DNA from: Rugalucina vietnamica
Taxonomy: Eukaryota > Mollusca > Bivalvia > Lucinida > Lucinidae
Reading direction: 5' to 3'
Length of the DNA: 64,000 nt
Assembly (NCBI GenBank): GCA_964017185.1
Contig: OZ024876.1
Coordinates: forward strand, 34,511,278 to 34,575,277
This document shows positions 18,124 to 54,666 of the stretch, piece after piece. Made by a program: the position numbers and the translations under genes. Under the pieces are notes generated by a model. It searched no databases. It was not told the origin of the DNA and worked only from the letters and a program-made list of their open reading frames with translations. Numbering within the stretch: position 1 is the first letter of the stretch; each line of letters opens with the position of its first letter.

Positions 18124-19741
18124 AACCAGAGGATCATTGGTCCTGAGAACGCTCACCTGAAGCCTGATCTTGGAGCATCAAGTCATCATGATATAACCTT
18201 GACCTTGAATACTCGATCATAAGTTGCCTGCATCTGCCAAGTTTCAGGTCTCAGGCTGCAATAGTTTCCAAACCCAGTGATTTCTGAGAAAACCATAATC
18301 TTAATTTTGATATTTAAATGATCTTGGGTCAAGGTGACGAAATGACCTTGCCCTTAATTAATTACTTATCTTCATTGACTCCATTAGTTGATTGTATCTG
18401 GCAACTTTCAAGTCTCATGCTGCAATAGTTTCAAAAATATCCATTGTTTTTGCCTTTTCCCATGTAAAGCCTATAGATGTTTCCAAATTGACCTTGCCAT
18501 AAAATAGGTCAAGGTCATCCTAGGGTCAACATTTGATCAAACTATGATGGGCTGGAGTCCCAAATGCTACACACCAAGTTTCATGAAAATCGGCCTACCG
18601 ATTCTGGAGAAGATTTTTTAAGGGTATTTACCATATATGGGCCTGGCGGCCATCTTGGTCATGTGACCAAGATGCCACTATCCAAGGAGGCTCCACATAA
18701 AATTTCTACTTGATCGGCCTAGTGGTTTCGGAGAAGATCTTTGAAATTGTGACTTAATTTTGATATTTCAATTACCTTGGGTCAAAGTCAAGAAATGACC
18801 TCGACCTTAATTAATTACATACCTTCACTGACACCATTAGCTGTCTGTATCTAGCAACTTTCTAGTCTCAGGCTGCAATAGTTTCCAAAATATCCATTGT
18901 TTTCGCCTTTTCCCATGTAAAAGCCTATGTTTTCAAAATTGACCTTGTCGTAAAATAGGTCAAGGTCATCATAGTGTCATCATTTGAACAAACTATGATA
19001 GGCTGGAGGTCCCGATGTTACATACCAAGTTTCCTGGAAATCGGCCCACCGGTTCTGGAGAAGATTTTTTAAGGATTTTTACCATATATGGGCATGGCTG
19101 CCATCTTGGTCATGTGACCAAGATCCCGTGATTAAACTTTCATTCCCCCTACCCATGGAGGCTCCATATAAAATTTTCACTTGATCGGCAAAGCAGTTTC
19201 AGAGAAGATCTTTGAAATTGTGACTTAATTTTGATATTTCAATGACATTGGGTAAAGGTCAAGAAATGACCTTGGCCTTAATTAATTATATACCTTCATT
19301 GACTCCATTAGTTGTCTACATCTAGCAACTTTCAAGTCTCAGGCTGCAATAGTTTTCAAAATATCCATTGTTTTAGCCTTTTCCCATGTAAAAGCCTATG
19401 TTTCCGAAATTAACCCTGCCGTAAAATAGGTCAAGGTCATTCTAGGGTCAACATTTGAACAAACTATGATGGGCTGGTGTCCCCGATGCTACATACCAAA
19501 ATTCGTGGAAATCGGCAAACCGGAGAAGATTTTTGAAGGGTTTTTACCATATATGGGTGTGGTGGCCATCTTGGTCATGTGAACTTTCATTCCCCCTACC
19601 CATGGAGGCTCCACATAAAATTTCAACTTGCTCGGCCAAGCGGTTTCAGAGAAGAAGATCTTTGAAATTGTGGATGGCGACGACGACGGACGGATGCCGG
19701 AGCATGCCTATTCTATAAGCTCACCTTGGCTCACGTGAGCT
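18124..19741 (-). mobile_element. Helentron-like element E1 (subfamily a), inserted in A copy 9
   Basis: Read on the minus strand it starts AGCTCACGTGAGCC, has a GACG-rich stretch, then about three tandem units of about 460 bp, and ends in TCAGGTGAGCG, the hairpin AGGACCAATGATCCT and CTGGTT. The host A sequence AATAAG/AAAAATAGG is continuous across the insertion with no duplication beyond the A-run. Terminal stem-loop, subterminal inverted GCTCACCTGA, tandem core and T-rich target fit Helentron/HINE-type non-autonomous Helitrons. There is no Rep/helicase frame. The long frames in it are repeat noise. Confidence 0.7.
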
Positions 19742-19831
19742 AAAAATAGGTATATTCCTACATACCCCAATTTTGCTATATAAAAATGGGGTTCAAGGGG
19801 GTATACATTATACGGACATGTTTTCGTGATG
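19742..19831 (+). repeat. Family A element, copy 9, right part
   Basis: Resumes AAAAATAGGTATATTCC and ends GACATGTTTTCGTGATG. Completes the element interrupted by E1. Confidence 0.88.
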
Positions 19832-20166
19832 ATCTGAATTTGGATAAATAGATGCCTCCCGTTAAGTTTTAACATGCTTTGCCATTATCAAAATAGTTTG
19901 ATCTCATTAGGCTTAGGCCCTTGCACAGTTTACGCCACATAAACGGAATCAGACATTTATTTTTGTCAACAATGTGTATTCTTTAAACAAATCTTAATCT
20001 ACTATGTGCATGAATAAACCACAAGCTACGCAAATTAATCCAGCTGGCTAATCTGCACCTTTGTGTAGGTAGTTTGACGTCGCTAATAAGACAGAGACAA
20101 ACTTTTATGTAATCGCTAGACCGGGCTCTTTTGACACACCAAGGGACAAGACATTTTGATACCATG
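19832..20166. other. No recognisable feature
   Basis: Unique sequence between an A and a B element. Confidence 0.45.
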
Positions 20167-20404
20167 TGAGCAGCAACGTGAGAAAACCAGTCTTCAGGGT
20201 TTCCGACCAGGTCCGACGCAAACCGGTCTGTGCAGCCACAGAAGATGGCTAGTAACTTGAAATTTCGGATTTAAGAAGAAGAGAAATTGTACTATCTGTG
20301 TAGTGAAAAACAAAGGTGCTGATCAGCTGTGCAGTTACTGCACAGCTGATCTGCGGCTTTGTTTTCGCATCTGCAAACTCCGGTTTTTCTCATGACGCAG
20401 TTCA
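20167..20404 (+). mobile_element. Family B MITE, copy 7
   Basis: Flanked by ATGT on both sides (left CATGTG, right CATGTG). Ends have drifted (GAGCAGCAACGTG, GACGCAGTTC) while the duplication is perfect. Confidence 0.87.
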
Positions 20405-20629
20405 TGTGAGGTTAGTTCATGGATGTCTATGGAAGGTTGTCATTTGCTAATTAATTACAGCATTAAGGGACTCGTCCACAAAGACACATTTAGCACCGAT
20501 GGTGTTCTGTTTTAGTGCTTTGACAATATAGAAGTGTCAATTGTCTACATATGTTCTTGATCAGGTTGAGACCAAAATATACTGATGAGAAAAAACATGG
20601 AATGTTCGGGTTAATTTTCTACAATTGAA

Positions 20630-21121
20630 CTACATGATGAAAAGTATTTCCACAACATCAGGAAAACATGTCCGTACAATAAATACCCCCTTAAACCCCA
20701 TTTTTATACAGTAAAACTGGTGTATGCAGAGGTATACCTATTTTTCTTATTTTTGGTCAGTATTCTAACGTGTACCCATGATCTATGTTTTGGGCAATAA
20801 TATTAAGAATATCAAAGTTTTTCTGATGAATTTTTCAGTTTTTACAGCTGAAAAAAATCTCAGTATATTGCATGGGCACATTTTCATAATGACGTCAGAA
20901 ACTTCCACAGACATGCATGTATTTTCAGGTTTTCAGGCAACATATTTTCATGATTCTGGTGTCATTTGAAAAGTAAATGAATAAAGTAATAAACAAGATA
21001 TTTTCAATCAATGCCATGCATGCGTTTTCAAGCTACCAATTTTTAAACATTATATATATAAGATTTATTTTGACAATTTTTGAGCAATGTCACCATTTAA
21101 AATACAAAGGTCCTAACTGTA
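20630..21121. mobile_element. Family I Tc1-like element, copy 2, interrupted by A copy 10
   Basis: Shares AAAAGTATTTCCACAAC, CACAGACATGCATGTATTTTC, TTTTCATGATTCTGGTGTC and AATAAAGTAATAAACAAG with the clean copy at 55104. The right end reads GGTCCTAACTGTA. The left end is degraded. Confidence 0.6.
20656..20891 (-). repeat. Family A element, copy 10, inside family I copy 2
   Basis: Starts CATCAGGAAAACATGTCC, lacks the loop (jumps from GGTCAG to TATTCTAACGTGTACCC) and ends TTTTCATAATG. It splits TTTCCACAA from CGTCAGAAAC of family I with at most one or two duplicated bases. Confidence 0.82.
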
Positions 21122-21182
21122 TCCATTCAATCTTTGTCTATGTGTTGTGGGGGTTGAGTGGTTGGTTAAGAGGAGGTGGGAT

Positions 21183-21207
21183 GGGGTTGGGGTGGGGTTG
21201 GGAGGGG
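21183..21207 (+). other. G-quadruplex-capable G-rich tract
   Basis: Four or more G-runs of at least three (GGGGTTGGGGTGGGGTTGGG, then AGGGG) in an otherwise AT-rich context. The wider G-rich segment starts near 21139. Structure is predicted from motif only. Confidence 0.6.
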
Positions 21208-21403
21208 AGTCAAAGGCATACAAAGATTTGTATAATAAAATATTTTTAAGTGCCACTGGGTGATGTATCCAGATATTTAGACTAATCCAACAATGGTATT
21301 CAAAAATCTCCAAGGAAATGCCATCAGTTATTTTAATTAACCAGTAATTTGCCATTTGTTGGAAAAAGATAGCTGTAACCTATTGGTAGCAGATGTAGCA
21401 ATT

Positions 21404-21639
21404 TGAGCCATGTCATGAGAAAACCTACATTTTGCATATGCAAAAACAAAGGCGCAGATCAGCTTTGCAGTAACTGGGAAGCTGATCAGCGCCTTTGTTT
21501 TCACTACATGGATGATACAATTCCTCTACTTTCTAAATCCAAAATTTCCAGCCTAAAGCCATCTTCTGTGCTTGTACAGCCCCGTTTCTGTCGAACCTGT
21601 TCGGAAATCACATTGTTTGTTTTCTCATGACGCAGCTCA
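21404..21639 (-). mobile_element. Family B MITE, copy 8
   Basis: Flanked by ATTT on both sides. Ends GAGCCATGTCATGAG and CTCATGACGCAGCTC. It lies 53 bp before the 58-bp satellite. Confidence 0.87.
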
Positions 21640-21692
21640 TTTATTCTCCAATATCTGCTGTAACAGTCTCTGACAGCTTCAGGACCATACCT

Positions 21693-23364
21693 GGCATGGT
21701 ATTAGAGAGACAAAGCATTGTCACTGACTGAGACTATAGTCTGATCAAATGGCACGGTATTTTAGAGAGATAAAGTATTGTCACAGTCTGATCAAATGGC
21801 ATGGTATTAGAGAGACAAAGTATTGTCACTCACTGAGACTATAGTCTGATCAAATGGCATGGTATTAGAGAGACAAAGTATTGTCACTGACAGAGACTAT
21901 AATAGTGTGATCAAATGGCACGGTATTAGAGAGACAAAGTATTGTCACTGACAGAGACTATAGTCTGATCAAATGGCATGGTATTACACAGACAAAGTAT
22001 TGTCACTGACGGAGACTGTAGTCTGATCAAATGGCATTGTATTAGAGAGACAAAGTATTGTCACTGACAGAGACTATAGTCTGATCAAATGGCATGGTAT
22101 TACAGAGACAAAGTATTGTCACTGACGGAGACTGTAGTCTGATCAAATGGCATGGTATTAGAGAGACAAAGTATTGTCACTGACAGAGACTATAGTCTGA
22201 TCAAATGGCATGGTATTACAGAGACAAAGTATTGTCACTGACAGAGACTGTAGTCTGATCAAATGGCATGGTATTAGAGAGACAAAGTATTGTCACTCAC
22301 TGAGACTATAGTCTGATCAAATGGCATGGTATTAGAGAGACAAAGTATTGTCACTGACTGAGACTGTAGTCTGATCAAATGGCATGGTATTAGAGAGACA
22401 AAGTATTGTCACTGACGGAGACTGTAGTCTGATCAAATGGCATGGTATTAGAGAGACAAAGTATTGTCACTGACTGAGACTGTAGTCTGATCAAATGGCA
22501 TGGTATTAGAGAGACAAAGTATTGTCACTGACGGAGACTGTAGTCTGATCAAATGGCATGGTATTAGAGAGACAAAGTATTGTCACTGACGGAGACTGTA
22601 GTCTGATCAAATGGCATGGTATTAGAGAGACAAAGTATTGTCACTGACGGAGACTGTAGTCTGATCAAATGGCATGGTATTAGAGAGACAAAGTATTGTC
22701 ACTGACGGAGACTGTAGTCTGATCAAATGGCATGGTATTAGAGAGACAAAGTATTGTCACTGACTGAGACTGTAGTCTGATCAAATGGCATGGTATTAGA
22801 GAGACAAAGTATTGTCACTGACTGAGACTGTAGTCTGATCAAATGGCAAGGTATCAGAGAGACAAAGTATTGTCACTGACTGAGACTATAGTCTGATCAA
22901 ATGGCATGGTATTAGAGAGACAAAGTATTGTCACTGACTGAGACTGTAGTCTGATCAAATGGCATGGTATTAGAGAGACAAAGTATTGTCACTGACTGAG
23001 ACTATAGTCTGATCAAATGGCATGGTATTAGAGAGACAAAGTATTGTCACTGACGGAGACTATAGTCTGATCAAATGGCATGGTATTAGAGAGACAAAGT
23101 ATTGTCACTGACTGAGACTGTAGTCTGATCAAATGGCAAGGTATCAGAGAGACAAAGTATTGTCACTGACTGAGACTATAGTCTGATCAAATGGCATGGT
23201 ATTAGAGAGACAAAGTATTGTCACTGATGGTGACTATAGTCTGATCAAATGGCATGGTATTAGAGAGACAAAGTATTGTCACTGACAGAGACTGTAGTCT
23301 GATCAAATGGCATGGTATTAGAGAGACAAAGTATTGTCACTGACGGAGACTGTAGTCTGATCAA
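21693..23364. repeat. 58-bp satellite array, about 29 units
   Basis: The unit reads GGCATGGTATTAGAGAGAC, AAAGTATTGTCACTGAC, then a variable GAGACTRTAGTCTGATCAAAT block. Unit 2 is shortened to 47 bp; the rest are 58 bp. Variation concentrates at three sites: TGACTGAG, TGACGGAG or TGACAGAG; ACTATAG or ACTGTAG; and ACAGAG or GAGAG. A rare GGCAAGGTATCAG unit occurs at 22845 and 23135, exactly five units (290 bp) apart. No frame stays open through the array. Confidence 0.97.
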
Positions 23365-23633
23365 AATCGGCTGAGAATCTTGAAAAGAAACAAATAATTA
23401 CTCATTCACATTAAAAGAGTTTGGTATATTCCTACATAGGGATTTCCTACAAAATTTTATTTCATTTTTCTTTTTTGATTTCATTGGCCAATGTTTGAAT
23501 TAGGCATTATCATGCTCTAAAATACACTGGTACCATTATATTTGACTTTTTGTTTTAAAAAAAAAACGGTACAGCATTAATTAGTATTTACTACATCATT
23601 AAAATGACAATATATTTTGAAAGCAACTATATA
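23365..23633. other. No recognisable feature
   Basis: AT-rich, with a T/A-run near 23555; separates the satellite from element K. Confidence 0.5.
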
Positions 23634-24164
23634 CAGGCCACCTGGGCTATCTCAAACTGGTTGTCTCGAAAACCCCACTTATGTCGAAGTTATCTCTCAC
23701 TCCCGAGAGTTTCTCCCTATATCTTATTGTATTTCAACCTTGCTTGTGTCAAACTCTGTTATGTCGAAAACTCGGCTGTGTCGAAGGGATAGTTTGCTCC
23801 TCACAGATAAAATACTATTAGTTTCACCCTTCCAGTGTCAAACTTCGAAATCAAAAATTATCGGTCAGACTTCATGGTCAGCAAAGAGGAATAAAATAGC
23901 CAGTAGTCTATGCTGATTCGATATCTACATGCAACCTTTCATCACTGGAATTGTAAAAGAACGTTTTGACTTGTGTCATGGTGGGAATATATGTTTGAAA
24001 CCACTATCGATGGAGTAAACATGGTGTAAAACGAAAGGAGAACCACTCAGACCGGAAATGTGAGAGAGTTGAGCTTTTTGGTCTCAATTAGCTTATCTCG
24101 AACTTCAGAAAACTCGAAGTGTTTTCTTAATTCCCCTTGATTTCGAGATAGCGAAGGTGGCCTG
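23634..24164. mobile_element. Element K, pogo-like MITE, 531 bp
   Basis: Inverted ends CAGGCCACCTGGGCTATCTC and its partner (GAGATAGCGAAGGTGG, CCTG), flanked by TATA on both sides, consistent with a TA duplication. The interior is full of TGTCGAA/CTCGAA motifs, common in pogo/Tigger-type elements. No transposase frame. Confidence 0.75.
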
Positions 24165-24236
24165 TATAGAGATAATTTAATATATGGTCTTGTGTCAAAT
24201 AACAACGACATACCCAAAGTTCATAAAATCCAAACA

Positions 24237-24466
24237 TACCATAAAAATTCTATTAAACACCCACACTCTAATAAACACCCATCCCCTATTTGGATGCTAA
24301 AAACTGGCCATTTTATCTGTGAGTTTTGGAATTCAAGGAACCTCTCATAAATGCCCACTTTAAAATGTTGGGAGAAAATCCTATATTTTAAGCGGTAAAT
24401 TTCTAATTTCCCTGCTTTATCACATAACGCAAATCTAAGTTTCCCTTGTAGTCCAAATAAATGGTA
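24237..24466. mobile_element. Family M element, copy 2
   Basis: Left end TACCATAAAAATTCTATT with repeated AATAAACACCC motifs, right end AATAAATGGTA, both bounded by TA. Shares the layout of the copy at 25684. An 83-codon minus-strand frame starts at 24472 and lies almost wholly within it, with no domain. Confidence 0.5.
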
Positions 24467-24529
24467 ATACATTGGGATTATAACACCTTCTTAGAACAAA
24501 AGTCCTGTCTGCGGCAATCGAGATCCACC

Positions 24530-24548
24530 TAACAGCTCAGGTGAGCTA
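24530..24548. repeat. Family E terminal motif, solo
   Basis: CAGCTCAGGTGAGCTAATAA matches the tail of the Helentron-like elements. Only this short piece is present. Confidence 0.3.
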
Positions 24549-24643
24549 ATAAACACTGCAAACAGGTGGTATACTCCAAACAGGTATTTTTAGTGGATAC
24601 TTTACGTCTCTTTTGGACAAAATTTAATCTGCACGGTCATGCA

Positions 24644-25557
24644 ATTCCGATTATCGGAAAAGATGGCGTGACGTCATCAGCCAGCATCCGGGTCACTTTC
24701 ACGGGTACAAATCAGTGATGGCGGCTTTATTAAAGGTCAATATACATTATGGTTTATTTTCATAAATAATCCAAAACACCCAAATCTTTAAAAGTTTTGT
24801 TGTGTAATGAAGGAAGATTGTTTCGAGAATGAATATATTTTGAATTTGGAAGGAAAATATCTTGAATAGCGCAATATTTCCCTGTTTATTTATAGTTAAA
24901 TATTTTGATTTTTCGGCAAGCACGGGCGGCTGTGTTTGATCTCTCGTTAATTAATATCATGCAATTTCAGGCACTTCAGCCTAAAATTACACTGAAAACT
25001 TAAGACAAGCTTACGTCGTAGTATTTTTGCTGTCATTTTGTAGTATCTGTTTTTGGAGGAGATCGACATATTTAAGATTTTAAATAACTACCACACATGC
25101 TTGGATTTTAAAACTCCAACAACGCCACGGTTATTGTTGTTTCTTCATATTACTAAGTAAAATCGTGAAATATAAGCTGCCGTTAGATAAAAAACAAATC
25201 TAGAAAAAGGTGAGCTGAAAATTCATTGTTTTCAACTCGGAATACTGAATTAGCTTCTGAGAAAGAGTTAGATCTACATGTTATTGGATAACTTTATCAT
25301 TCAGTTTTCCAAGTTGAAAACAAACCTTGCCAAAATAATTTTGCAGACATATGACGGATAATTCTTTTTCAGTGGTTCTATTATTAAGTTAAATTTATTT
25401 TAGTTAATTCAGCTTTGATTCAACGTATATAACAATTTAAGACACATTTTCCCGCACAAATATGTGTATTAAGTTTGTGTATTTATTGACTCTGTACCCG
25501 TGAGTTCACAGGTAATGTTATAGATGACGTCATCGCCATCTTTTCCGATAAGCGGAA
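24644..25557. mobile_element. Element L, about 910-bp inverted-repeat element with TGACGTCA in its ends
   Basis: Left end ATTCCGATTATCGGAAAAG, then ATGGCGTGACGTCATC; the right end is its inverse (GATGACGTCATCGCC, ATCTTTTCCGATAAGCGGAAT). About 35 bp of inverted similarity. No coding frame and no clear target duplication. Class unknown. Confidence 0.65.
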
Positions 25558-25685
25558 TTATCCTAGCAACTCTGTTCCTGGGCAGATTACCAATGCATAG
25601 TGGACATACTTTGAAAACTGTTTTCTGGAATCAGCCTGGTTTGTGTCTAACCTGCTCAGAAACCCCTTAAACAGATTTTCATGTA

Positions 25686-25990
25686 CCATATTTGATCTAA
25701 TTAGCGCACATGCTCCAATAAGCGCATACCCTGGTAGTTTCCGAAAAGCATTTGCATAAATGCACATTGCTCGACTAGCATATTACACATTTTTTACACA
25801 AAAATAATGTATCACCGCATTTAAACACTATTTTGAAATGATTGGAACATGGCATCATCACTGATTTATTTTGACATCTTTGTTTTATCAGTTAATGTGT
25901 TGTTTTGGTTCGTAGAGTGCACTTATTAGAACCATATTTTGTTACCTTTGAAAAATTAAGTGCACTGTGCCCAAATTAAAATGAATATGG
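25686..25990. mobile_element. Family M element, copy 1
   Basis: Inverted ends CCATATTTGATCTAATT, AGCGCAC and the partner GTGCCC, AAATTAAAATGAATATGG, with TA on both outer sides. Contains AATAAGCGCA and CACTTATTAG motifs. A TA-flanked MITE. Confidence 0.6.
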
Positions 25991-25992
25991 TA

Positions 25993-26226
25993 TCTTATAG
26001 CTCAACGGAACCTGCTTTAGAAGAGTCATGTTTTATAATTAGGAGTCCTGTCTGTATTTACCATTTGTCTTGTTTGACTTGTTATCTCATTAACAGTAAT
26101 TACTACAACATACACCAGCAATTAGCATGATGCTTCTTTTCCAGCATAAAGAGAATGAAAGAAGTCATCAAATAGTTTTTGTGCAATTTTTATTCATTTT
26201 TGTTATTTTTTATCTGTTTATTTTTT
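25993..26226. other. No recognisable feature
   Basis: Short unique AT-rich stretch. Confidence 0.45.
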
Positions 26227-26290
26227 AGCTCATCTGAATGAGCCATTAAAAACTTACTAGGTGAGCTTATGGTATAATTCGGCAAATAGG
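26227..26290 (+). repeat. Family E 5'-terminal fragment
   Basis: TTAGCTCATCTGAATGAGCC...AGGTGAGCTTATGG reproduces the 5' stem-loop of the Helentron-like elements, here in plus orientation. The core and 3' end are absent. Confidence 0.5.
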
Positions 26291-26375
26291 TCACTGTATA
26301 GGCGGCAACTTTAATATTCATATCTGGGCGTGGTCGGCTAATCGATCTGTTCAAGTAGGGAGATTATAGAAAAGT

Positions 26376-26502
26376 CGAACATGTACCCACAATCTATGTT
26401 TTGAGCAAAAATAAGAAAAATATCAAAAATTTTCTACTGAAAATTTTCAATTTTTACAACTTAAAAAATCTCTGTATATTGCATGGGCATGTTTTCGTAA
26501 TG
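26376..26502 (-). repeat. Family A, AT-rich half only (copy 11)
   Basis: Starts at ACATGTACCCACAATC and ends GCATGTTTTCGTAATG. The terminal ATGGACATGTGTGCGTAATG is partly repeated just after it. Confidence 0.8.
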
Positions 26503-26576
26503 CATGGACATGTGTGCGTAATGATAACGTTGGCTGGGATGACATTACTCAAAGTTCCAGCAAGTTATCATTATGC

Positions 26577-26763
26577 CGCTGGGTCCGACACCAACCGGCT
26601 TGTATATTCACAGATGCAGTCGAGAAGCTTGAAATTTTGAATATATGTAGAACTAGGAGAGGAACTCCTACTATTCATGTAGCGAAAATAAAGGTGCATT
26701 ATACAATGGTCTGCACCTTTGTTTTCGCATATGCATATTGTTAGTTTTCTGATGCGGAGGCTC
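26577..26763 (+). mobile_element. Family B MITE, copy 9, left end lost
   Basis: From CCGCTGGGTCCGACACC through TAGCGAAAATAAAGGTGC to GATGCGGAGGCTCA. The central palindrome is reduced. The left inverted end is unrecognisable. Confidence 0.75.
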
Positions 26764-26978
26764 ATCTGTCTTCAACCATAAACTCTCCAATGCATTCTGA
26801 TTGGATAGAAGAATATCAGTTTAGTCTAGCTTTTCTATTTGCCAGAAATTATTTAAATACATTCAAATGTTTGCTTGTCACTGCGCCAAATTGTTTCTTT
26901 CACAAAGCATATGAAATCCAATTAACGCCTAACGACAGATTTTCACACATTATATAATGGCTTCAATTTCGGCACAAA

Positions 26979-27215
26979 TGAGCCTCGACGCGAGAAAACC
27001 GGTCTTCGGGGTTTCCGACCAGGTCCGACACAAACCGGCCTGTACAAGCTCAGAAAAGAGGTAGAAGCTTGAAATTTCGGATTTAGGAAGAAGAGAAATT
27101 GTACTATCCGAGTAGCGAAAACAAAGGCGCTGATCAGCTTCGCGGTTACCGCGAAGCTGATCTGCGTCTTTGTTTTCGCCTAGGCAAAAATCCGGTTTTC
27201 TCACGATGCGGCTCA
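26979..27215 (+). mobile_element. Family B MITE, copy 10
   Basis: 237 bp, nearly identical to the copies at 5946 and 6788, flanked by AAAT on both sides. Confidence 0.9.
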
Positions 27216-28222: not shown

Positions 28223-28268
28223 TATGAAGTCTATGACATGCCCACAGACCATGGATCAGAAAACCAAA

Positions 28269-40441: not shown

Positions 40442-40718
40442 TATTACGAAAACATGCCCATGTAATATACAGAGATTTTTTAAGCTGTAAAAGTTGAAAA
40501 ATTTCAGTAGAAAATATTTGATATTTTTCTTATTTTTGCTCAAAACATAGATTGTGGGTACACGTTAGAACCCTCGCCGAGGCGGTTCTAACGAGTACCC
40601 ACAATCTATGTTTTGGAGCAAAAATAAGAAAAATAGGTATACCCCTGCATACCCCAGTTTTGCTATATAAAAGTGGGGTTTAAGGGGGTATACATTACAT
40701 GGACATGTTTTCGTGATG
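40442..40718 (+). repeat. Family A element, copy 20, full length
   Basis: Both ends and loop are present (first loop arm short: GTTAGAACCCTCG). TGTACATT lies close to both ends (40435-40442 and 40718-40725), the only hint of a target duplication in this family. Confidence 0.9.
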
Positions 40719-44990: not shown

Positions 44991-45104
44991 CTTCTGTGAT
45001 GTAACTAACACCCGGGTGGTCAGGGCAAACAGCACAGACCGAGATCAGATAATTTCTGACTGTACTGCAATATTCTACATGAGATTTGGTGGCATTCCTC
45101 TTTA

Positions 45105-45365: not shown

Positions 45366-45433
45366 ACAAGATCAGATGACAGCTTGTTGGAAGAGTTAGG
45401 AACATTATGGTACTTAGTTTCAGCAGGTAAATA

Positions 45434-45670
45434 TGAGCTTCGTGGTGAGAAAACCCCTCTTCTGGGTTTCCAACCAGGTCTGACACAAATTGGCCTGTAC
45501 AGTAACAGAAGAATGCTAGATGCTTGAAACTTTGCATATCAATAGAAGAGGAACTGTACTATCCGTGTAGCGAAAACAAAGGCGCTGATCAGCTGTGCAG
45601 TTACCGCACAGCTGATCTGTGCCTTTGATTTTGCACAGGCAAAGATCTGGTTTTCTCATGACGAGGGTCA
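45434..45670 (+). mobile_element. Family B MITE, copy 21
   Basis: 237 bp, flanked by ATAT on both sides. Ends GAGCTTCGTGGTGAG and CTCATGACGAGGGTC have drifted while the target duplication is exact. Confidence 0.86.
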
Positions 45671-46041
45671 TATAAATTATATTCAGATAACGTTTTCAAA
45701 ACATATATTATTTCAAATGATGAAATTTTAATTGATTTCCAACTTTTCTAGATACCCTCAAGGAAAAGCTAAAGAAAAACATCAGCAGACACACTGTCAT
45801 GGTTCTGCAAGTTTTGCCAAGAAATGTTACAGGTTAATAAATTGCTTCCTCATTTACCAGAATGTCACAAAAATAATAACAAAACCACACATCATATACA
45901 TTAAAACCTAAAAACCTCAAAGAATCACAGAAAATCTGGTATAAAAAAGAAAAGTCACTCTAATAAGCAACAATAAAATCATTTGGCTTACCTCTAGAGG
46001 TTTCATGACAACATGGACACTCCAGTTTACGTGGTCGTCTG
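45671..46041. other. No repeat; splice-like signals on both strands
   Basis: On the plus strand 45752-45832 is an 81-bp open segment between TTCCAACTTTTCTAG and GTTAAT (one frame contains KLKKNISRHTVMVLQVLP). On the minus strand a frame with KLECPCCHETSR runs into a good donor, GTAAGC, near 45990. Neither is enough to call an exon. Confidence 0.2.
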
Positions 46042-47003
46042 CTACTGAATGGCACTATAAAATGGCTGCTGCATGACTTGTTCACCAGGAACAGTTGCCA
46101 AATTTAGAACAGAGTGCTCCTGAAGCTGACACACACTGTGATTGCCTGTAAGAAGATAGGTACAAGACTTTGAACACACTTCCTCGCCTGTAAGACAGTG
46201 GAAAAGTTGACAAAGTCCGGGTTTACCGTAAACATTCTCAAACGTTGCTGTCACATTGTAATTATTGTAAAGTTTAATACTGTATGTCTGGAAATGTTCA
46301 CCAAGACTTTTATATAATATCTGCGAATTCATTGCTTCTGGAATTAAGATTTCTCAATACTGTAAATTATGAAATTCTTGCACAACTTATTTTGAAAATT
46401 TTCGTTTTCCAAACTATTCGTGAAGTTTTGAATTCGCAAACATTTATCATGTAGTCTTTACGCACCAGTCATTTGTAACCACTGCTCCCCCACCTATGGG
46501 GAAGGGCAGGGATTATGATTTTTCAGCTTTCAGTGCCCTGCTGTAAGCCCCACCCCCAGGGGGTGAACTGGATGTCAAAACATTGCTCTTTTCCCCACCA
46601 TTAGCAAGAGAAAATCTCCCTGGGGTAAGGATCGTAACATAAAACCCCCGTCATTTCCCCTGCAGGGACACTCGAACACTCGAAAAGTAATTGCCCTGCA
46701 CTTTAGCACGGCTATCCCCAACCTTCCCCGTAGGTGGGGGTGGGGGTGGCAGTGGTTACAAATGACTGGTGCATTTTGAATTCTCTAGGCGCCGGATTCA
46801 CACATATTCATGAGTTTTAAATTCTTGCAAACATTTATGATCTTATAGTAGTTAGGTCTAGATTATAAGCTCTGTAAAACTGAAAAAAAACTTAAACATG
46901 ACACCTCAAAAGAACTTTCACAAACAACATGAAATTCATGTGATAATTTTCATACTTACAGTAAAGAAAGTGAAATGTAGAATACGAAAACAATCAGCCT
47001 CAT
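46042..47003 (-). CDS. Putative small secreted protein, two-exon model, possibly decayed
   Basis: I do not recognise this protein. The first exon (47003-46960) starts in a strong context, GCAGCCATGA, and encodes a signal-peptide-like string (MRLIVFVFYISLSLL region), then a perfect donor GTAAGTATG. A second segment, 46279-46042, is open on the same strand and stays in phase if the acceptor is ACATACAG at 46281-46280. It carries NVT and NHS glycosylation sequons and five cysteines (LCQLFHC, EEVCSKSC, SVCQL). The frame ends at TAG, but another frame, open across the stop, continues with RRPRKLECPCC to a good donor near 45990, so a frameshift or unseen splice is possible. The intron would contain a TA-flanked MITE whose own end supplies the donor. 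Real gene, pseudogene and coincidence are all still possible. Confidence 0.25.
46358..46963. mobile_element. Family H MITE, copy 2, with a nested element
   Basis: Ends TACTGTAAATTATGAAATTC and (inverted) TACTGTAAGTATGAAAATT, beginning and ending in TA. Interior strings such as TTTTGAATTCGCAAACATTT and CATGTAGTCTTTA match copy 1 at 59261. Read on the minus strand it starts TACTGTAAGT and ends TTTACAGTA, so it carries GT and AG splice dinucleotides at its ends. Confidence 0.65.
46462..46772. mobile_element. 311-bp MITE with GCACCAGTCA ends, nested in family H copy 2
   Basis: Left end GCACCAGTCATTTGTAACC, then ACTGCTCCCCCACCTA; the right end is its inverse (TAGGTGGGGGTGG, GCAGTGGTTACAAATGACTG, GTGC). 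Inverted similarity covers about 45 bp. GC-rich interior with CCCCAGGGGG-type palindromes. No clear target duplication, no frame. Confidence 0.8.
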
Positions 47004-47082
47004 GGCTGCAGAGGAAGTCATTTGAAAATGATGACAATAGATGACAGTGGCCAGGTACCCACGCATGCTATAAGCTCACCTA

Positions 47083-47211
47083 CCTGCGAAGCTAATCAGC
47101 ACCTCTGTTTTTGCTACATGGATAGTACAATTCCTCAACAATGCCTTGTACAGCCCAGTTTGTGACAGACCTGTTCAGAAACCACATTGTTTTTCCTCAT
47201 GACATGGCTCA
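47083..47211 (-). mobile_element. Family B, right half only (copy 22)
   Basis: CTGCGAAGCTAATCAGCACC to CTCATGACATGGCTCA. The other half is missing; it abuts a CTATAAGCTCACCT string similar to family E ends. Confidence 0.75.
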
Positions 47212-47275
47212 AATTTTGTCGATTACGGGTCTTACGCTCTACCAACAGCTAATGCCATACGGACAAGGGGCCTCT

Positions 47276-47554
47276 CATTACGAAAACATGCCCATGCAAT
47301 ATACAGAGATTTTTTTCAGATCTAAAAATTGAAAATTTCATTGTAAAATTTTTGATATTTTTCTTATTTTTGCTCAAAACATAGATTGTGGGTACACGTT
47401 AGAACCGCCTCGCCGAGGTGGTTCTAATGAGTACCCACAATCTATGTTTTGGAGCAAAAATAAGAAAAATAGGTATACCCCTGCATACCCCAGTTTTACT
47501 ATATAAAAGTGGGGTTTGCGGGGGTATTCATTTCAAGGACATGTTTTCCTGATG
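47276..47554 (+). repeat. Family A element, copy 26, full length
   Basis: CATTACGAAAACATGCCC to CATGTTTTCCTGATG, with an intact loop GTTAGAACCGCCTCGCCGAG, GTGGTTCTAA. No matching flanks. Confidence 0.92.
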
Positions 47555-48020
47555 GTTAAAAGTCTCATCTGACAGAACATATGACAAGAGCCAGTCTAGT
47601 AAGTTCACATACAGGTAATTCCAGCACCAGAACATGCTGCCTCTTTGAGCCAATAATGTGTTCAGTTTATTTACCTGGTCAAACATTTCATCAAGTGATT
47701 CTTTTCATTCAATCTCTGGTTGCCATGGCAACTGTCCCGTAGCCAGGTATAAACTGTCAAAGATCAAAGTATAACTGTCAGGGGAAGCTGCGACTTATCT
47801 CTACAGTCAAAACAGCAGATTAGCAACAAGGGGTGTAACATGCATGGTATTTGTGGTCATTTTTAAGTATATTTTGTGAAATTATTTTTTGGGTTGATTT
47901 CGGTTTGAATGTCCCAGTAACAGCTTAAGTCATGTGGACAGGGGACCACAGTTGAAAGTCTTATCCGACAGACGGACTGGAGAACTGTTAAATTATGCAT
48001 TAGCAGAAGATAACATGACC
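47555..48020. other. No gene seen
   Basis: Unique sequence; near 47905 GAATGTCCCAGTAACAGC weakly resembles an inverted SINE tail. Confidence 0.4.
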
Positions 48021-48272
48021 TATCAGGAAAACATGTCCTTGTAATGTATACCCCACTTTTATACAGTAAAAGTGGGGCATACTGGGGTATACCTATTTTT
48101 CTTATCATTTCTCCAAAACATTGACTGTATGTACTCGTTAGAATCACCTCGCCCCATAATCTATGTTTTGAGCAAAAATAAACAAAATATAAACAAAAAA
48201 TTCTACTGAAATTTTCCTTTTTGTACAATTTTTTAAAATCTCCGTATATTGCATGGGTGTGTTTTCGTAATG
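48021..48272 (-). repeat. Family A element, copy 27, loop arm lost
   Basis: TATCAGGAAAACATGTCC, first arm and TTAGAATCACCTCG, then directly CCCCATAATCTATG; ends GTGTGTTTTCGTAATG. Confidence 0.83.
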
Positions 48273-48441
48273 GTCAGAACCTAAGTCAAAAGGTTTTAAC
48301 AAACTCAATTTAAGCATACTGTCAGCAGCAAAGTAACTGAATGATAAGTGCAAACAGAACTTTTGAAATGAACTCAATGCAATAGCAACTTCTGAATATG
48401 CCCAAGTACAGGTTTTCTCATGACTCGAGTTTGCATTTTAA

Positions 48442-49385
48442 GGATGTTCGCTGCCAATGAAAAAGTATTCAAACTTTTTTTCTAACCACTCTTTTTTGAT
48501 TCCAAAATACAACACAAGACATTTGAAAACAAAATAAATAGAGGGTAGTGTGCATTTTTTCAAGCTACAGGCCTCTGAATGAGACCTCTGAGCACCATGT
48601 TTTAAATTTGGTAAAATTAATTGAATTTTTAATTCTTTGAAACATACCTGTCTTGAACAAAAATACACCTAGAATGCTTTCAAAAGTCATAATATTTACG
48701 TAGCGCAGACAATTTTGGACCAAAAGCATAGAAAATTTTGCAACTTGGAGTGGATGACAAAATTTTACAATTCCTTTTCCAACCCTACCCCCATACTTGA
48801 AAAGTCGGAAAAAATCAATATTTTGAAATGTACCAAACCCATATTTGTTGATTCAAACTTTTTCTTGTATTTTCACACAACATAGAACTTGGTAATATTG
48901 TTCGAATAAAAGAAAGAAATGTATAGGGTAGTGAGCATATAAGAGAGAACCAACAACTTGAAAATCGCCATTTTCAGCCTTTTTTCGGCTGTTTTGTTTC
49001 TAAAAGCCCATTTCATAAAACCACCTTAAATTTTCAAACCAACACACCAAAGACACAAAGAATAGCTTAGAAGACCATGTACACATATACTGCTGCTAAA
49101 ATAAACATCGAACTAGTGCAATTAATTTGAAGATGTGTAATATTCAAGTTTAATCTACCCTACCCCCTAAATTTTACTGACAACTAAAATTTTCTGAAAA
49201 GTTGCAGAAAATGGGGTGAAAAAATGAAGCTTCTTAGATTGACAATTTTCATAGCTCATTCAATGCATATTATCAATATGTAATCAAATATAAAATATTA
49301 GGAAAATATCTGCAACCGTTTGCGAGATATTCAAGAAAAGAAAAACCGGAAGTTCCGAAATGTCAAATGTTAGCAGCGAACATCC
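48442..49385. mobile_element. Element O, 944-bp MITE in a TTAA site
   Basis: Ends GGATGTTCGCTGCCAA and the inverted TTAGCAGCGAACATCC, with TTAA directly outside both (48438-48441 and 49386-49389). The AT-rich interior has no frame above 76 codons and no transposase motif. TTAA duplication is typical of piggyBac and Kolobok superfamilies; which one is unresolved. Confidence 0.87.
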
Positions 49386-49465
49386 TTAAAGCACCTTTTG
49401 GGATAAATCACAGAGAGACATGATGTCCCAGTATGAGACACAACACAATAAAATATAATCATGAC

Positions 49466-49701
49466 CATTACGAAAACTTGCCCATGCAATATATATATAG
49501 AGATTTTTTCAGCCATAAAATTCGGAAATTTCAGCAGAAAATTTTTGATACTTTTTCTTATTTTTGCTCAAAACATAGATTGTGGGTACACATTAGAATC
49601 GCCTCGCCGAGAAAAATAGGTATACCCCTGCATACCCCAGTTTTGCTATATAAAAGTGGGGTTTAAGGGGGTATACATTACACGGACATGTTTCCCTGAT
49701 G
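49466..49701 (+). repeat. Family A element, copy 28, loop arm lost
   Basis: CATTACGAAAACTTGCCC through GCCTCGCCGAG, then directly AAAAATAGGTATACCCC, so one full arm is missing. Ends CATGTTTCCCTGATG. Confidence 0.86.
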
Positions 49702-49857
49702 AGCCCAAAAATATGGCAGTGCCAAACATACAAGAGATCAGCCCAAATATGAGCCCAAACTGATAATGTCTTTGCTGCCAAGCTATGATGCTCCTTCAAT
49801 ATTCATCAAAAGCTAGCAATGGCCTCCACTTAAATAATCAGATATCTGATCAAAAAT

Positions 49858-49889
49858 CACATTGATGGTTTTCTCATGACGCGGCTCAA
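49858..49889 (-). repeat. Family B terminus, solo
   Basis: CACATTGATGGTTTTCTCATG, then ACGCGGCTCA, matches the right end of minus-oriented B copies; the rest is absent. Confidence 0.5.
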
Positions 49890-50048
49890 ATCACAGCTGA
49901 ATAATTGAAGTGCCTTTAGATCAGATTGGTTTACCTGTAAACTAATTAAGGTTAATAATTAATGAGTTTGATTAAGTAAAAAATCAAAGACATGATATCT
50001 GTCCTTTGAACATGGAGACATCACTGATAGAAAATTGCTGCAGTAAAA

Positions 50049-50268
50049 CATTATGAAAACTTGCACATACAAAGATTTTTTTTTTTCAGATATAAAAATT
50101 GAAAATTTTACTGGAAAAATTTTGATTTTTTTTTTATTGGAAAAATTTTGATTTTTTTAATATTCGCGCTCAAAACATACATTGCAGGTACACGTTACAT
50201 ACATTGTGGGTACTCGTTAGAACCACCTCACCGAGGCGGTTCGAACGAGTACCCACAATGTATGTTTT
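50049..50268 (+). repeat. Family A element, copy 29, left part (host of a SINE and two Helentrons)
   Basis: CATTATGAAAACTTGCAC onward; ATTGGAAAAATTTTGATTTT is duplicated in the AT-rich half and ACATACATTG occurs twice before the loop. It breaks after CACAATGTATGTTTT, where a SINE is inserted. Confidence 0.85.
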
Positions 50269-50520
50269 TTTTTGTTTTTTGTTTTTTAATTCAGTTTTAC
50301 GTCCCTTTCAAGATTATTTCAGCTCACATGAGACGGGCCAATCAGTAGGTGGGCGAAAACGGGAGAACCCCGAGAAAAACCACCTGGCACACCCGCAAGC
50401 AGAACTTGGCTTGTCTCACATGTGGTCAGAGCGGGGCTCGAACCCACACCAGACACAGCGGTGAGATGATCGAATGATTAAGAAACAGCGTTCTTAACCG
50501 CTCCGCCACAGGGGCCGCTT
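50269..50520 (-). mobile_element. tRNA-derived SINE, full length, with 15-bp TSD
   Basis: On the minus strand it starts AAGCGGCCCCTGTGGCGG. A-box TGGCGGAGCGG and B-box GGTTCGAGCCC are perfect and correctly spaced. A GGGTTCTCCCGTTTTCGCCC block and the 3' end GGGACGTAAAACTG plus A/T-rich tail follow. CACAATKTATGTTTT flanks it on both sides (50254-50268 and 50521-50535, one mismatch), the duplication expected from LINE-mediated retroposition. Transcription would be by Pol III from the internal boxes. Confidence 0.9.
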
Positions 50521-50549
50521 CACAATTTATGTTTTGGATCAAAAATAAG
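50521..50549 (+). repeat. Family A element, copy 29, short middle part
   Basis: SINE target duplicate CACAATTTATGTTTT followed by GGATCAAAAATAAG, then the Helentron-like element E3 begins. Confidence 0.85.
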
Positions 50550-52533
50550 AACCAGAGGACCAATGGTCCTGTAAACGCTCACCTGAGATCAGCTGCATAT
50601 ACCAATAAACATGTTTGAATATTATGGAATTTAACTCCAGTGCAGGGGCAGATGAGGCCTTGGGCCATTTTCTTTTTTCAGAATCTTCAATATTCTGTCC
50701 ATTTGCCAATTTCCTGCTGGCTTTTCCCTTCAAATGACATTTTAACAGTTTTCCCAATTCAGATACATAGGCAACCCATGTTGACCTTGCCATAAACTTG
50801 GTCAAGGTCATCACAGGGTCATGATTTATATATACATTGGAGTACTTTAGCCATCGATGCCTCCCGCCAAGTTTCCTTGAAATCAGTCTTTTGGTTTCAG
50901 AGAAGATGACTTTTGATGGGTTTTTACCATATATGGGCATGGCGGCCATCTTTGTCATGTGATCTAGATTATTTATATACACACTGATTCCCCCATTCTA
51001 TAGATGCTTCACATAAAATTTGGCTTTGATTGGCCAAGCGGTTTCAGAGGAGAAGATGTTTAAATATTATAGAGATATACATGTATATTGCCCCAGGGTG
51101 GGGGCACATGAGCCCTTGGGGTCCATTTTTTTTCAGAATCATAAATATTCAGTCCTACTTCCCATTTTCTGCAAGACTTTCACTTTAAATGACATTTTAA
51201 AAGTTTTCCCCATTCAAATACATTGGCAACCTATGTTGACCTTGCCGTAAAATAGGTCAAGGTCATCACAGGGTCATGATTTATATGTACATTAGAGTGC
51301 TTGAGCCATCGATGCTTCATGCCAAGTTTCGTTGAAATCGGTCAACCGGTTCTGGAGAAGAAGATTTTTGAAGGGTTTTTACCATATATGGGCATGGCGG
51401 CCATCTTGGTCATGTGACCTGGACTTTTTTATATACATACTTGTTACCCCTTCCTATTGATGCTTTACATAAAATTTAGCTTTGATTGGCCAAGTGGTTT
51501 CAGAGGAGAAGACTTTTGAATATTATGGAGATATACATGTATATTGCCCCAGGGTGGGGGCACATGAGCCCCTGGGGTCCAATTTTTTTCAGAATCATTA
51601 ATATCCAGTCCTACTGCCCATTTCCTGCAAGACTTTCACTTTAAATGACATTTTAAAAGTTTTCCCCATTCAAATGCATTGGCGACCTATGTTGACCTTG
51701 CCGTAAAATAGGTCAAGGTCATCACAGGGTCATGATTTATATATACATTGTAGTGCTTGAGCCATCGATGCTTCATGCCAAGTTTCGTTGAAATAGGTCA
51801 ACCGGTTCTGGAGAAGAAGATTTTTGAAGGGTTTTTACCATATATGGGCATTGCGGCCATCTTGGTCATGTGACCTGGATTTTTTATATACACATTGGTT
51901 CCCCCTTCCCATAGATGCTTCATGTAAAATTTGGCTTTGATTGGCCAAGCGGTTTCAGAGAAGAAGATGTTGAATATTATGATAATATACATGTATATTG
52001 CCCCGGGGTGGGGGCGGATGAGCCCCTGGTGCCCAATTTTTTTCAGAATCATTAATATTCAGTCCTACTGCTCATTTTCTGCAAGATTTTTCCTTTAAAT
52101 GACAATTTAACAATTTTTCCCATTCAAATGCAAAGGCGACCTATGTTGACCTTGCCGTAAAATAGGTCAAGGTCACCGCAAGGTCATGATTTATATACAC
52201 ATTGTAGTACTTGAGTCATCGATGCTTCATGCCAAGTTTGGTTGAAATCGGTCCAGTGGTTCCGGAGAAGAAGATTTTTGAAGGGTTTTTACCATATATG
52301 GGCATGGCGGCCATCTTGGTCATGTGACCTGGATTATTTATATATACATTGGTTCCCCCTTCCCATAGATGCTTCATGTAAAATTTGGCTTTGATTGGCC
52401 AAGCTGTTTCAGAGGAGAAGATCTTTGAAAATGGTGGACAACGGACGACGGACGGACGACGGACGGACGGACGGACGACGGAGCATGGGTATACTATAAG
52501 CTCACCTTGTGAGCCTGACGGCTCAGGTGAGCT
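50550..52533 (-). mobile_element. Helentron-like element E3 (subfamily b)
   Basis: On the minus strand: 5' stem AGCTCACCTGAGCC / GGCTCACAAGGTGAGCT, a CGTC-rich microsatellite (complement of 52436-52478), four tandem units of about 457 bp, subterminal TCAGGTGAGCG, hairpin AGGACCATTGGTCCT and terminal CTGGTT. Units start with TTGACC-TTGCCGTAAAATAGG near 50780, 51237, 51692 and 52148 on the plus strand. Non-autonomous; no coding frame. Confidence 0.75.
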
Positions 52534-54666
52534 AACCAGAGGACCATTGGTCCTGAAAGGCTCACCTGAAGCCTGATCCTAGAGTATTAAGTCATCATGA
52601 AATGACCTTGACCTTGAATACTCACACACCTTTATTGAATTCTTAAGTTGTCTGCATCTGCAAAGTTTCAGGTCTCAGGCTGCAATATTTTCCAAACCCA
52701 GTGATTTATGAGAAAACCATAATTTTAATTTTGATATTTAAATGACTTTGGGTCAAGGTCAAGAAATGACCTTGGCCTTCATTAATTACTTACCTTCATT
52801 GACTCCATTGGTTGTCTGCATCTAGCAACTTCCAGGTCTCAGACTGCAACAGTTTCCAAAATATCCTTCTTTTCGCCTTTTCCCATGTAAAAGCCTATGT
52901 TTCCAAAATTGACCTTGCCGTAAAATAGGTCAAGGTCATCCTATGGTCATCATTTGATCAAACTATGATGGGCTGGAGTCCCAAATGCTACATACCAAGT
53001 TTCATGAAAATCGGCCTGCCAGTTCTGGAGAAGAAGATTTTTGAGTGGTTTTTACCATATATGGGCGTGGCGGCCATCTTGGTAATATGACCTGGATTTT
53101 GCGATCAAACTTTCGTCTCCCCTACCCATGGATGCTCCATATAAAATTTCACTTTGATTGGCCCAGCAGTTTCAGAGAAGAAGATCTTTGAAAAGTGTGT
53201 ATGGACGACAGACTGGCCAAGGTCAAGAGATGACCTTGACCAAAATTAATCACATACCTTCATCTACTCCATTGGTTGTTTGCATCTACCGCTTTTCAAG
53301 CATCAGGCTGCAATAGTTTTCAAAAAATCCATAGTTTTCACTTTTTCCCATGTAAAAGCCTATGTTTCCAAAATTGACCTTGCCGTAAAATATTTCAAGG
53401 TCATCCTAGGGTCATCATTTTATCAAACTATGATGGGCTGGAGTCCCAAATGCTACATACCAAGTTTCATGAAAATCGGCCTGCTGGTTCTGGAGAAGAA
53501 GATTTTTGAGTGGTTTTTACCATATATGGGCGTGACCTGGATTTCGCGATCAAACTTTTGTCTCCCCTACCCATGGATGCTCCATATAAAATTTCACTTT
53601 GATTGGCCAAGCAGTTTCAGAGAAGAAGATCTTTGAAAAGTGTGTATGGACGACATACTGGCCAAGGTCAAGAGATGACCTTGACCTACATTAATCAAAT
53701 TCCTTCATATACTCCATTAGTTGTTTGCATCTACCACTTTTCAGGCATCAGGCTGCAATAGTTTTCAAAAAATTCATAGTTTTCACTTTTTCCCATGTTA
53801 AAGCCTATGTTTCCAAAATTGACCTTGCCGTAAATTAGGTCAAGGTCATCCTAGGGTCATCATTTTATCAAACTATGATGGGCTGGAGTCCCAAATGCTA
53901 CATACCAAGTTTCATGAAAATCGGCCTGCCGGTTCTGGAGAAGAAGATTTTTGAGTGGTTTTTACCATATATGGGCGTGGCGGCCATCTTGGTCATGTGA
54001 CCTGGATTTCGCGATCAAACTTTCGTCTCCCCTACCCATGGATGCTCCACATAAAATTTTAGTTTGATTGGCCCAGCAGTTTCAGAGAAGAAGATCTTTG
54101 AAAAGTGTGTATGGACGACAGACTGGCCAAGGTCAAGAGATGACCTTGACCTATATTAATCACATACCTTCATCTACTCCATTAGTTGTTTGCATCTACC
54201 ACTTTTCAGGCCTCAGGCTGCAATAGTTTTCAAAAAATCCATAGTTTTCACTTTTTCCCATGTAAAAGCCTATGTTTCCAAATTTGACCTTGCCGTAAAA
54301 TAGGTCAAGGTCATCAAAGGGTCATCATTTTATCAAACTATGATGGGCTGAAGTCCCCGATGCTACATACCAAGTTTCGTGGAAATCGGCCCACCGGTTC
54401 TGGAGAAGAAGATTTTTGAAGGGTTTTTACCATATATGGGTGTGGCGGCCATCTTGGTCATGTGACCTGGATTTCGCGACCAAGCTTGAAATGCCACTAC
54501 CCAAGGAGGCTCCACATAAAATTTCAACTAGATCTGCCAAGCGGTTTCAGAGAAGAAGATCTTTGAAATTGTGGACGACGGACGGACGACGGACGGACGG
54601 ACGGACGGACGCCGGATCATGGCCATCCTATAAGCTCACCTTGTGAGCCTTCGGCTCAGGTGAGCT
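52534..54666 (-). mobile_element. Helentron-like element E4 (subfamily a), head-to-tail with E3
   Basis: Joins E3 with no intervening base (GAGCT/AACCAGAGG at 52533/52534). Four core units of about 440-470 bp of the same subtype as E1 (GGCTGCAATAGTTTTCAAAA, CTATGATGGGCTGGAGTCCC). Microsatellite at 54572-54613. Its outer end is followed by AAAAATAG of the host A element, the same position as E1 in A copy 9. Confidence 0.75.

What the first reader, a model, noticed from the sequence alone, without database searches (positions are those of the whole stretch)
18124..54666. Helentron-like elements sit at exactly the same position in two different A copies
E1 in A copy 9 and E3-E4 in A copy 29 both break the host between AATAAG and AAAAATAG. 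Either the elements target this T-run very specifically, or an A element already carrying E moved as a composite. E1 and E4, which touch the same right flank, belong to the same core subtype, which favours either reading.
Basis: partly seen in the sequence, partly recalled or inferred. Interest (0 to 1): 0.72.

Follow-up and report, generated by a model that had tools for sequence, protein, structure and literature searches.

The report
Helentron insertion hotspot in palindromic MITE
One family of jumping genes has landed again and again, at exactly the same base, inside many separate copies of another very common repeat, which suggests that it chooses its landing site by a longer DNA signature than a plain run of T's.

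Summary
E1 (copy 9) and E3-E4 (copy 29) both split a 279-bp palindromic repeat (A) between consensus bases 190 and 191, with no host base lost. E is a non-autonomous Helentron (HINE): an autonomous Helentron read in this genome matches the E3/E5 end in 36 of 37 bases.

The coincidence is a genome-wide hotspot. Exact junctions at this base number 338 (AATGG form of E) and 75 (ATTGG form). The A-run 8 bp away has none at the corresponding base; another A-run of A has 2.

Repeated targeting explains it; a travelling A+E composite does not. The site is hit in both palindrome arms, in opposite orientation, by three E end-classes. Host-half and E distances are uncorrelated, although each carries signal (weakest for left-arm E). 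E-bearing hosts do not cluster apart from empty ones. Class-i E copies are younger than their hosts (median distance 0.046 against 0.161).

The arm bias (80:20) and flanks outside A point to sequence recognition reaching about 8 bp from the cut. E-bearing hosts do not have better palindromes, so a hairpin cue is not supported.

The parts
17967..18124 (+). Left part of host A copy 9 (MITE-like palindromic element, consensus 1-190)
   Evidence: alignment to A consensus
18125..19742 (+). E1, HINE-type non-autonomous Helentron, 5' class i (ACCAGAGGATCATTGG...GTGAGCTA)
19743..19831 (+). Right part of host A copy 9 (consensus 191-279)
50049..50550 (+). Left part of host A copy 29 (with a further insert at about 50269-50519)
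50551..52534 (+). E3, HINE-type element, 5' class ii (ACCAATGG), core repeats of about 456 bp, ACGG microsatellite 52441-52482
52535..54667 (+). E4, HINE-type element of the E1 type, core repeats of about 445-465 bp, GGAC microsatellite 54573-54616, directly behind E3
54668..54756 (+). Right part of host A copy 29 (consensus 191-279)
57042..59025 (+). E5, same type as E3, inserted outside A (between CATAGTA and AAATG, one A ambiguous); comparison copy
47276..47554 (+). Uninterrupted A copy with the intact target AATAAGA|AAAATAGG at 47459-47472
40442..40718 (+). Uninterrupted A copy with intact target at 40623-40636

Best explanation
E is a HINE, a non-autonomous Helentron moved in trans by autonomous Helentrons of this genome. 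Helentrons insert between two T's (A|A as written here). The motif that the machinery prefers in this genome is longer than TT: about TATTTT|TCTTATT on the T strand (AATAAGA|AAAATA on the other), with a further preference about 8 bp away on the T-run side. The A repeat carries this motif in both arms of its palindrome and is present in tens of thousands of copies, so it is the main carrier of the best target. Independent E insertions therefore fall at the same base in hundreds of A copies. E insertion leaves A|A at both of its edges, so a second E can land flush against the first, as E4 and E3 did. SHOWN: the shared insertion base, use of both arms, lack of shared history of host and E in the sample, preference over two other A-runs of A, and near-identity of E's end with that of one autonomous Helentron. 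INFERRED: that the Helentron's own Rep or C-terminal endonuclease makes the choice, the exact extent of the motif, and that A is its main carrier.
For: Exact shared junction. 338 and 75 exact junctions genome-wide with 0 in controls. Both arms, opposite orientation: in the first 100 of 338 listed, 80 right and 20 left by the diagnostic base. All 20 left-class loci were fetched: 16 show the A right half upstream on the reverse strand, 2 (L119, L125) are right-arm cases with a changed base, 2 (L120, L135) show no second A half; the 20 right-class loci fetched all score as right arm. Three E 5' classes at the same base among 87 distinct loci. Mantel A-half against E: r -0.03 (R,i, n 24), -0.125 (R,ii, n 27), -0.27 (L,ii, n 15), -0.51 (L,i, n 5); positive controls for R,i: within A 0.39/0.63, within E 0.80/0.98. 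Host tree: E/empty label 30 changes against 31.2 +- 2.5 shuffled (96 rows); class i/ii 19 against 17.2 +- 2.0 (51 rows). E in A and E elsewhere intermix: 26 of 52 nearest neighbours of the same label against 26.9. 338/40,795 against 2/1,979 at another A-run, odds ratio 8.2, p 4e-5; 0 at the adjacent A-run. Bases beyond the A-run matter: AAAAATATG:AAAAATATC 30:3 behind E outside A against 16:21 in background. Autonomous Helentron L180 shares 36 of 37 end bases with E3 and E5 and carries Helitron_like_N, PIF1 and Exo_endo_phos matches.
Against: 0 of 41 E starts taken in list order lie at the site, and exact counts give about 2% (338 of 17,621 and 75 of 4,330, lower bounds): a hotspot, not an exclusive target. 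The motif was not derived from an unbiased genome-wide insertion logo. The junction patterns count only insertion at one base of each A-run. The two control sites differ from the hot site in their flanks as well as in position. The control signal was weak in some groups (R,ii half against half 0.24 in A and 0.23 in E; L,ii E half against half -0.03), so L,ii says little and R,ii less than R,i. How often the same word is hit outside A, per word, was not measured.
Confidence: 0.8

Rival explanations
1. Composite movement: E inserted once (or a few times) into an A, and the A+E unit then spread as an A element.
For: Same base in many copies; the right arm is favoured about 4:1 over the left.
Against: Both arms are used, by three E classes in all. 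No A-E distance correlation. E-bearing hosts are not a clade. Hosts of class-i E differ by a median 0.161 but their E by only 0.046. No near-identical A+E pair: the smallest summed distance among the pairs tested within the four groups is 0.061.
Confidence: 0.05
2. Structure-directed targeting: the site is six bases inside the base of A's 55-pair stem, and an extruded hairpin or cruciform exposes it to the Helentron nuclease.
For: Mirror-image use of both arms at the same stem position; the consensus folds into one long stem with the site near its base; the neighbouring A-run further inside the stem has 0 insertions at the counted base.
Against: E-bearing hosts do not have better palindromes: a partner arm is found in 33 of 40 AATGG-form hosts against 19 of 20 empty copies (Fisher p 0.25; scores lower in E-bearing hosts, p 0.08), and in 22 of 30 ATTGG-form loci, 3 of which are not in A. 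Three of 30 AATAAGA|ACCAGAGG junctions lie outside A. The arm bias and flanks outside A fit sequence preference.
Confidence: 0.1
3. Generic T-run preference plus coincidence: any A-run of A would do, and the window's two copies agree by luck.
For: Helentrons are known to favour TT in T-rich DNA (PMC4067079, passages and section 6 read); -1 is A in 40 of 41 and -2 is A in 33 of 41 E starts taken in list order.
Against: 338/40,795 against 2/1,979 and 0 at two other A-runs of the same element.
Confidence: 0.04

Closest known systems
Cg_HINE elements of Crassostrea gigas (PMC7492417; passages and section 9 read)
   Same: Non-autonomous Helentrons with satellite-like tandem cores, short microsatellite (GTCC and similar), subTIRs and end palindrome; no TSD; TT in T-rich DNA; some inserted in other DNA transposons.
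   Different: That paper reports a general T-rich/TT preference and insertions into repeats; the passages read report no single-base hotspot in one repeat family.
Helentrons/HINE and DINE-1 (PMC4067079; passages and section 6 read)
   Same: subTIRs, palindrome near the 3' end, T-rich target without TSD, terminal T's belonging to the element, Rep/helicase with C-terminal AP-endonuclease in the autonomous partner.
   Different: Here the preferred target is longer than TT, and both mirror arms of a palindromic MITE are recurrent targets.
Nested-insertion preferences of plant LTR retrotransposons (PMC6911290; outline and abstract read)
   Same: TEs landing preferentially in particular regions of other TEs, with a weak preference for palindromes.
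   Different: Different element class; regional preference, not one base; no palindrome effect was found here.

Membership tests
HINE (non-autonomous Helentron) | Insertion in T-rich DNA between T's, without target-site duplication | tested here: met
   A at -1 in 40 of 41 and at -2 in 33 of 41 E starts; host parts of copy 9 abut at one consensus base with a single ambiguous A
HINE (non-autonomous Helentron) | Subterminal inverted repeats and a palindrome near the 3' end | tested here: met
   Seen directly: GCTCACCTGA near one end and TCAGGTGAGC at the other; AGGACCATTGGTCCT-like palindrome next to the ACCAGAGG end
HINE (non-autonomous Helentron) | Tandem core repeats and microsatellite (typical of DINE-1/Cg_HINE, not in every HINE) | tested here: met
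   445-465 bp cores and ACGG/GGAC microsatellites in E3 and E4
HINE (non-autonomous Helentron) | Shares terminal sequence with an autonomous Helentron (Rep/PIF1 helicase plus C-terminal endonuclease) | tested here: met
   L180: long ORF, PF14214 E 2e-27, PF05970 E 7e-19, PF03372 E 2e-5 (24.7 bits, cut-off 24.5) on the C-terminal piece; its 3' end matches E3 and E5 in 36 of 37 bases and then diverges. One copy was read. Its 5' end was not found in L181, so only one end was compared
Canonical Helitron | Insertion between A and T, 5'-TC...CTRR-3' ends (end motif recalled) | tested here: not met
   A|A (T|T) insertion and other ends
MITE of a TSD-making DNA transposon superfamily (for A) | Terminal inverted repeats | tested here: met
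   CATTACGAAAACATG / CATCAGGAAAACATG ends
MITE of a TSD-making DNA transposon superfamily (for A) | Target-site duplication of fixed length | tested here: not met
   No excess of matching flanks at 2-12 bp in 46 end pairs (a few redundant or loosely placed); only a 1-base excess, 50% against 30%

The most novel reading that the evidence does not exclude
The Helentron integration complex reads a motif of a dozen or more bases, with a DNA-structure component: it recognises the base of a palindromic stem, so that a hairpin MITE acts as a docking platform for a rolling-circle transposon, mirror-symmetrically on both arms.
Probability: 0.15. Interest if true: 0.65.

Novelty: new member of a known kind. 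Interest (0 to 1): 0.4.

Why it matters
Helentron target choice is described only as TT in T-rich DNA in the passages read (PMC4067079, PMC7492417). A repeat with tens of thousands of near-identical target sites, hundreds of them filled, is a natural experiment: it gives the insertion base, orientation, neighbouring-base effects and relative age of the events, and makes the role of the Helentron endonuclease in target choice testable.

Tried and rejected
Composite A+E movement: tested by distances, trees, arms and relative age, and rejected for the sample.

Hairpin/cruciform cue: tested by partner-arm score in E-bearing and empty hosts; no support.

Right-arm lineage expansion as the cause of the 4:1 arm bias: not needed, since E outside A shows the same direction of preference at a base that differs between the arms (of the 30 TG-class flanks listed only 11 were read, none in A; of the 5 TC-class all were read, 2 in A; of the 11 GC-class 4 were read, 1 in A).

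TSD of A: none found. 5' end of the autonomous Helentron: not within the 1.46 kb fetched upstream. PDB sequence search with the endonuclease piece: no match up to E 1. In the script one line used 383 = 338 + 45; the 45 was a guess of mine and that line is not used. Species: 17 large contigs and 1.09 Gb would suit Mya arenaria (1.22 Gb, 17 chromosomes; PMC10663159, passages read), but this was not tested.

Full report
WHAT WAS CHECKED. The window lies at G000:C8:34511278-34575277 of a 1.09-Gb genome in 47 contigs. The A repeat was described by a 279-base majority consensus from 16 of 20 uninterrupted copies fetched without regard to E. It starts CATTACGAAAACATG, ends CATGTTTTCCTGATG, and its centre folds into a stem of 55 pairs, consensus 81-136 with 140-196; the 16 copies differ from the consensus by 7.7% on average. 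The end of each arm carries AATAAGAAAAATA, followed by GG in the right arm and, on the other strand, by TC in the left arm. The 22-mer that includes this site occurs 40,795 times; among the first 100 listed 51 are GG and 46 TC.

THE TWO INSERTIONS. In copy 9 the A alignment runs to consensus base 190 at window 18124 and resumes at 190/191 at 19742/19743; in copy 29 the right part resumes at 54667/54668, and the last bases before E3 (CAAAAATAAGA, to 50550) end at the same base. No host base is missing or duplicated apart from one ambiguous A. E1 and E4 are one type, E3 and E5 the other. Copy 29 therefore holds two elements of different types in a row, not one rolling-circle concatemer. The exact E-E junction seen there occurs 250 times in the genome, in keeping with a target A|A left at each edge of an inserted E.

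WHAT E IS. The T|T insertion without duplication, the subterminal inverted repeats, the palindrome near one end, the satellite-like core and the four-base microsatellite match HINEs as described in PMC4067079 and PMC7492417 (passages and single sections read). All 150 scored Helitron_like_N candidates, of 409, pass the family's cut-off, many in open frames above 2,500 aa. One of the copies (L180) was read: a frame of at least 2,400 aa with Helitron_like_N, DUF6570 and PIF1 helicase and, in its C-terminal piece, Exo_endo_phos at E 2e-5. Written in E's direction, its 3' end matches the first 37 bases of E3 and of E5 with one mismatch each and then diverges; of 50 class-ii E copies in A, 1 has no mismatch, 37 have one, 10 two and 2 three; E1 and E4 differ more (4 and, through an indel, 11). 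E of class ii is thus most likely moved by this Helentron group. The Helentron's other end was not found in the stretch fetched.

HOW OFTEN THE SITE IS USED. Exact E starts: 17,621 of the AATGG form and 4,330 of the ATTGG form. Exact junctions at the site: 338 (AATGG form, with 15 host bases, one of them G or T) and 75 (ATTGG form, with 7 exact host bases). So the site takes about 2% of E insertions, a lower bound because only exact words were counted. None of 41 E starts taken in list order from contig C1 (20 AATGG-form loci, and 20 loci with 21 ATTGG starts) is at the site; two are in A at other bases. Of the 30 ATTGG junctions fetched (of 75), 27 lie in A and 3 outside it. From the other end, GGTGAGCTAAAAATAKS occurs 1,665 times; 54 of the first 100 listed end GG, and 18 of the first 20 GG loci, which were fetched, show the A right half. 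Within A, another A-run (CAGCTGTA|AAAATTG) has 2 filled against 1,979 intact, compared with 338 against 40,795 at the hot site (odds ratio 8.2, p 4e-5). The A-run 8 bp away in the same arm (GGAGCA|AAAATAAG) has 0 filled. Each count covers only one base position in its run, and the word lengths differ between filled and intact counts.

COMPOSITE OR REPEATED TARGETING. Of 87 distinct E-in-A junctions in hand, 62 were assigned to the right and 25 to the left arm by alignment score; window E3, whose left part is interrupted by another insert, was scored left although it is a right-arm case, and L120 and L135 show one arm only. Three E 5' classes share the base; right-i, right-ii, right-iii, left-i and left-ii all occur. 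The 76 with a host-half score of at least 150 (55 R, 21 L) were kept, and four groups of 24, 27, 5 and 15 were tested. The correlation of host-half and E distances was -0.03 (R,i), -0.125 (R,ii), -0.51 (L,i) and -0.27 (L,ii), with 995, 1594, 1982 and 1817 of 2000 shuffles reaching the observed value; on separate alignments -0.05, -0.08 and -0.28 for the three larger groups. The same sequences carry signal of their own: within host halves 0.385/0.626 (R,i), 0.244/0.516 (R,ii), 0.481/0.392 (L,ii); within E 0.798/0.983, 0.230/0.962, -0.030/0.964 (first against second half / odd against even columns); the half-against-half controls of R,ii and of L,ii E are weak. On a tree of 96 right-arm host halves (55 E-bearing, 41 empty) the E label needs 30 changes (shuffles 31.2 +- 2.5), and E class needs 19 (17.2 +- 2.0, 51 rows). 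Nearest neighbours with the same label were 34 of 96 against 48.6 expected; mean distances were 0.162 among E-bearing, 0.144 between, and 0.122 among empty hosts, so E-bearing hosts are more scattered, not clustered; the empty set was in part chosen on a longer exact word, which may make it look younger. E copies in A (32) and elsewhere (20) intermix (26 of 52 against 26.9). Class-i E copies differ by a median 0.046 while their hosts differ by 0.161: the hosts diverged long before E arrived, unless the two sequences evolve at very different rates. For right-arm class ii the medians are about equal (E 0.156, hosts 0.153), so the age argument rests on class i. Some of these loci (L001-L008) were found by similarity to E1's own junction, so the class-i set is not random.

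WHY THIS SITE. The arm bias (80:20 filled against 51:46 empty, p 7e-5) is stronger after reading the loci: of the 20 left-class places 16 are clearly left arm, 2 are right arm, 2 unclear, and the 20 right-class loci fetched are all right arm. It must come from what lies beyond the shared 20 bases. Outside A, E is followed by AAAAATATG far more often than by AAAAATATC (30:3 listed) while the background in hand is 16:21 (p 3e-5); some of the background TC sites may be diverged A copies, and 19 of the 30 TG flanks were not read further. The right arm (AAAAATAGG) and the left arm (AAAAATATC) differ at that last base in the same direction. This fits a sequence preference reaching about 8 bases from the cut. 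The hairpin alternative predicts better palindromes in filled hosts, but a partner arm is present in 33 of 40 AATGG-form hosts, 22 of 30 ATTGG-form loci (3 of these 30 not in A) and 19 of 20 empty copies. Today's palindromes need not be those at the time of insertion, so this lowers the structural reading without excluding it.

JUDGEMENT. The finding is real and its targeting reading is right. E itself is a new member of a known kind (HINE). The single-base hotspot in a palindromic MITE was not described in what was seen of the papers; the searches covered open-licence papers only, and apart from the four papers named in this report the hits were seen as listings with the starts of abstracts.

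Noticed in passing
G000 genome-wide; L180: All 150 scored Helitron_like_N matches (of 409 candidates) pass the cut-off, dozens in uninterrupted frames above 2,500 aa, many with the same score and similar length: the autonomous Helentrons look young and possibly still active.
   Followed up: partly
52534/52535 in the window; 250 places genome-wide: Head-to-tail E-E junctions of one form (GTGAGCTA|ACCAGAGG); in the window the two elements are of different types, so the pair arose by two insertions.
   Followed up: partly
L029:2763, L068:1717, L077:398 (strand-oriented offsets): Three separate E copies start at the same base of another E's core repeat (GCAATAGTTTTCAA or GCAATGGTTTTCAA|A), a second recurrent target.
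   Followed up: no
L164, L167: Two E copies share the same right flank outside A (AAAAATATGAAAACATACATAAGGCGCC), so another repeat may be hit at one base as well.
   Followed up: no
A copies, e.g. 47276-47554: A has terminal inverted repeats but no target-site duplication of 2-12 bp in 46 end pairs; only the single flanking base matches more than expected. Its superfamily is unclear.
   Followed up: partly
about 50269-50519: An insert in host copy 29 with tRNA-like letters on the reverse strand (a SINE by look; label recalled, not tested).
   Followed up: no
21785-23365: Tandem array of about 27 copies of a 58-bp unit, 95% matching.
   Followed up: no
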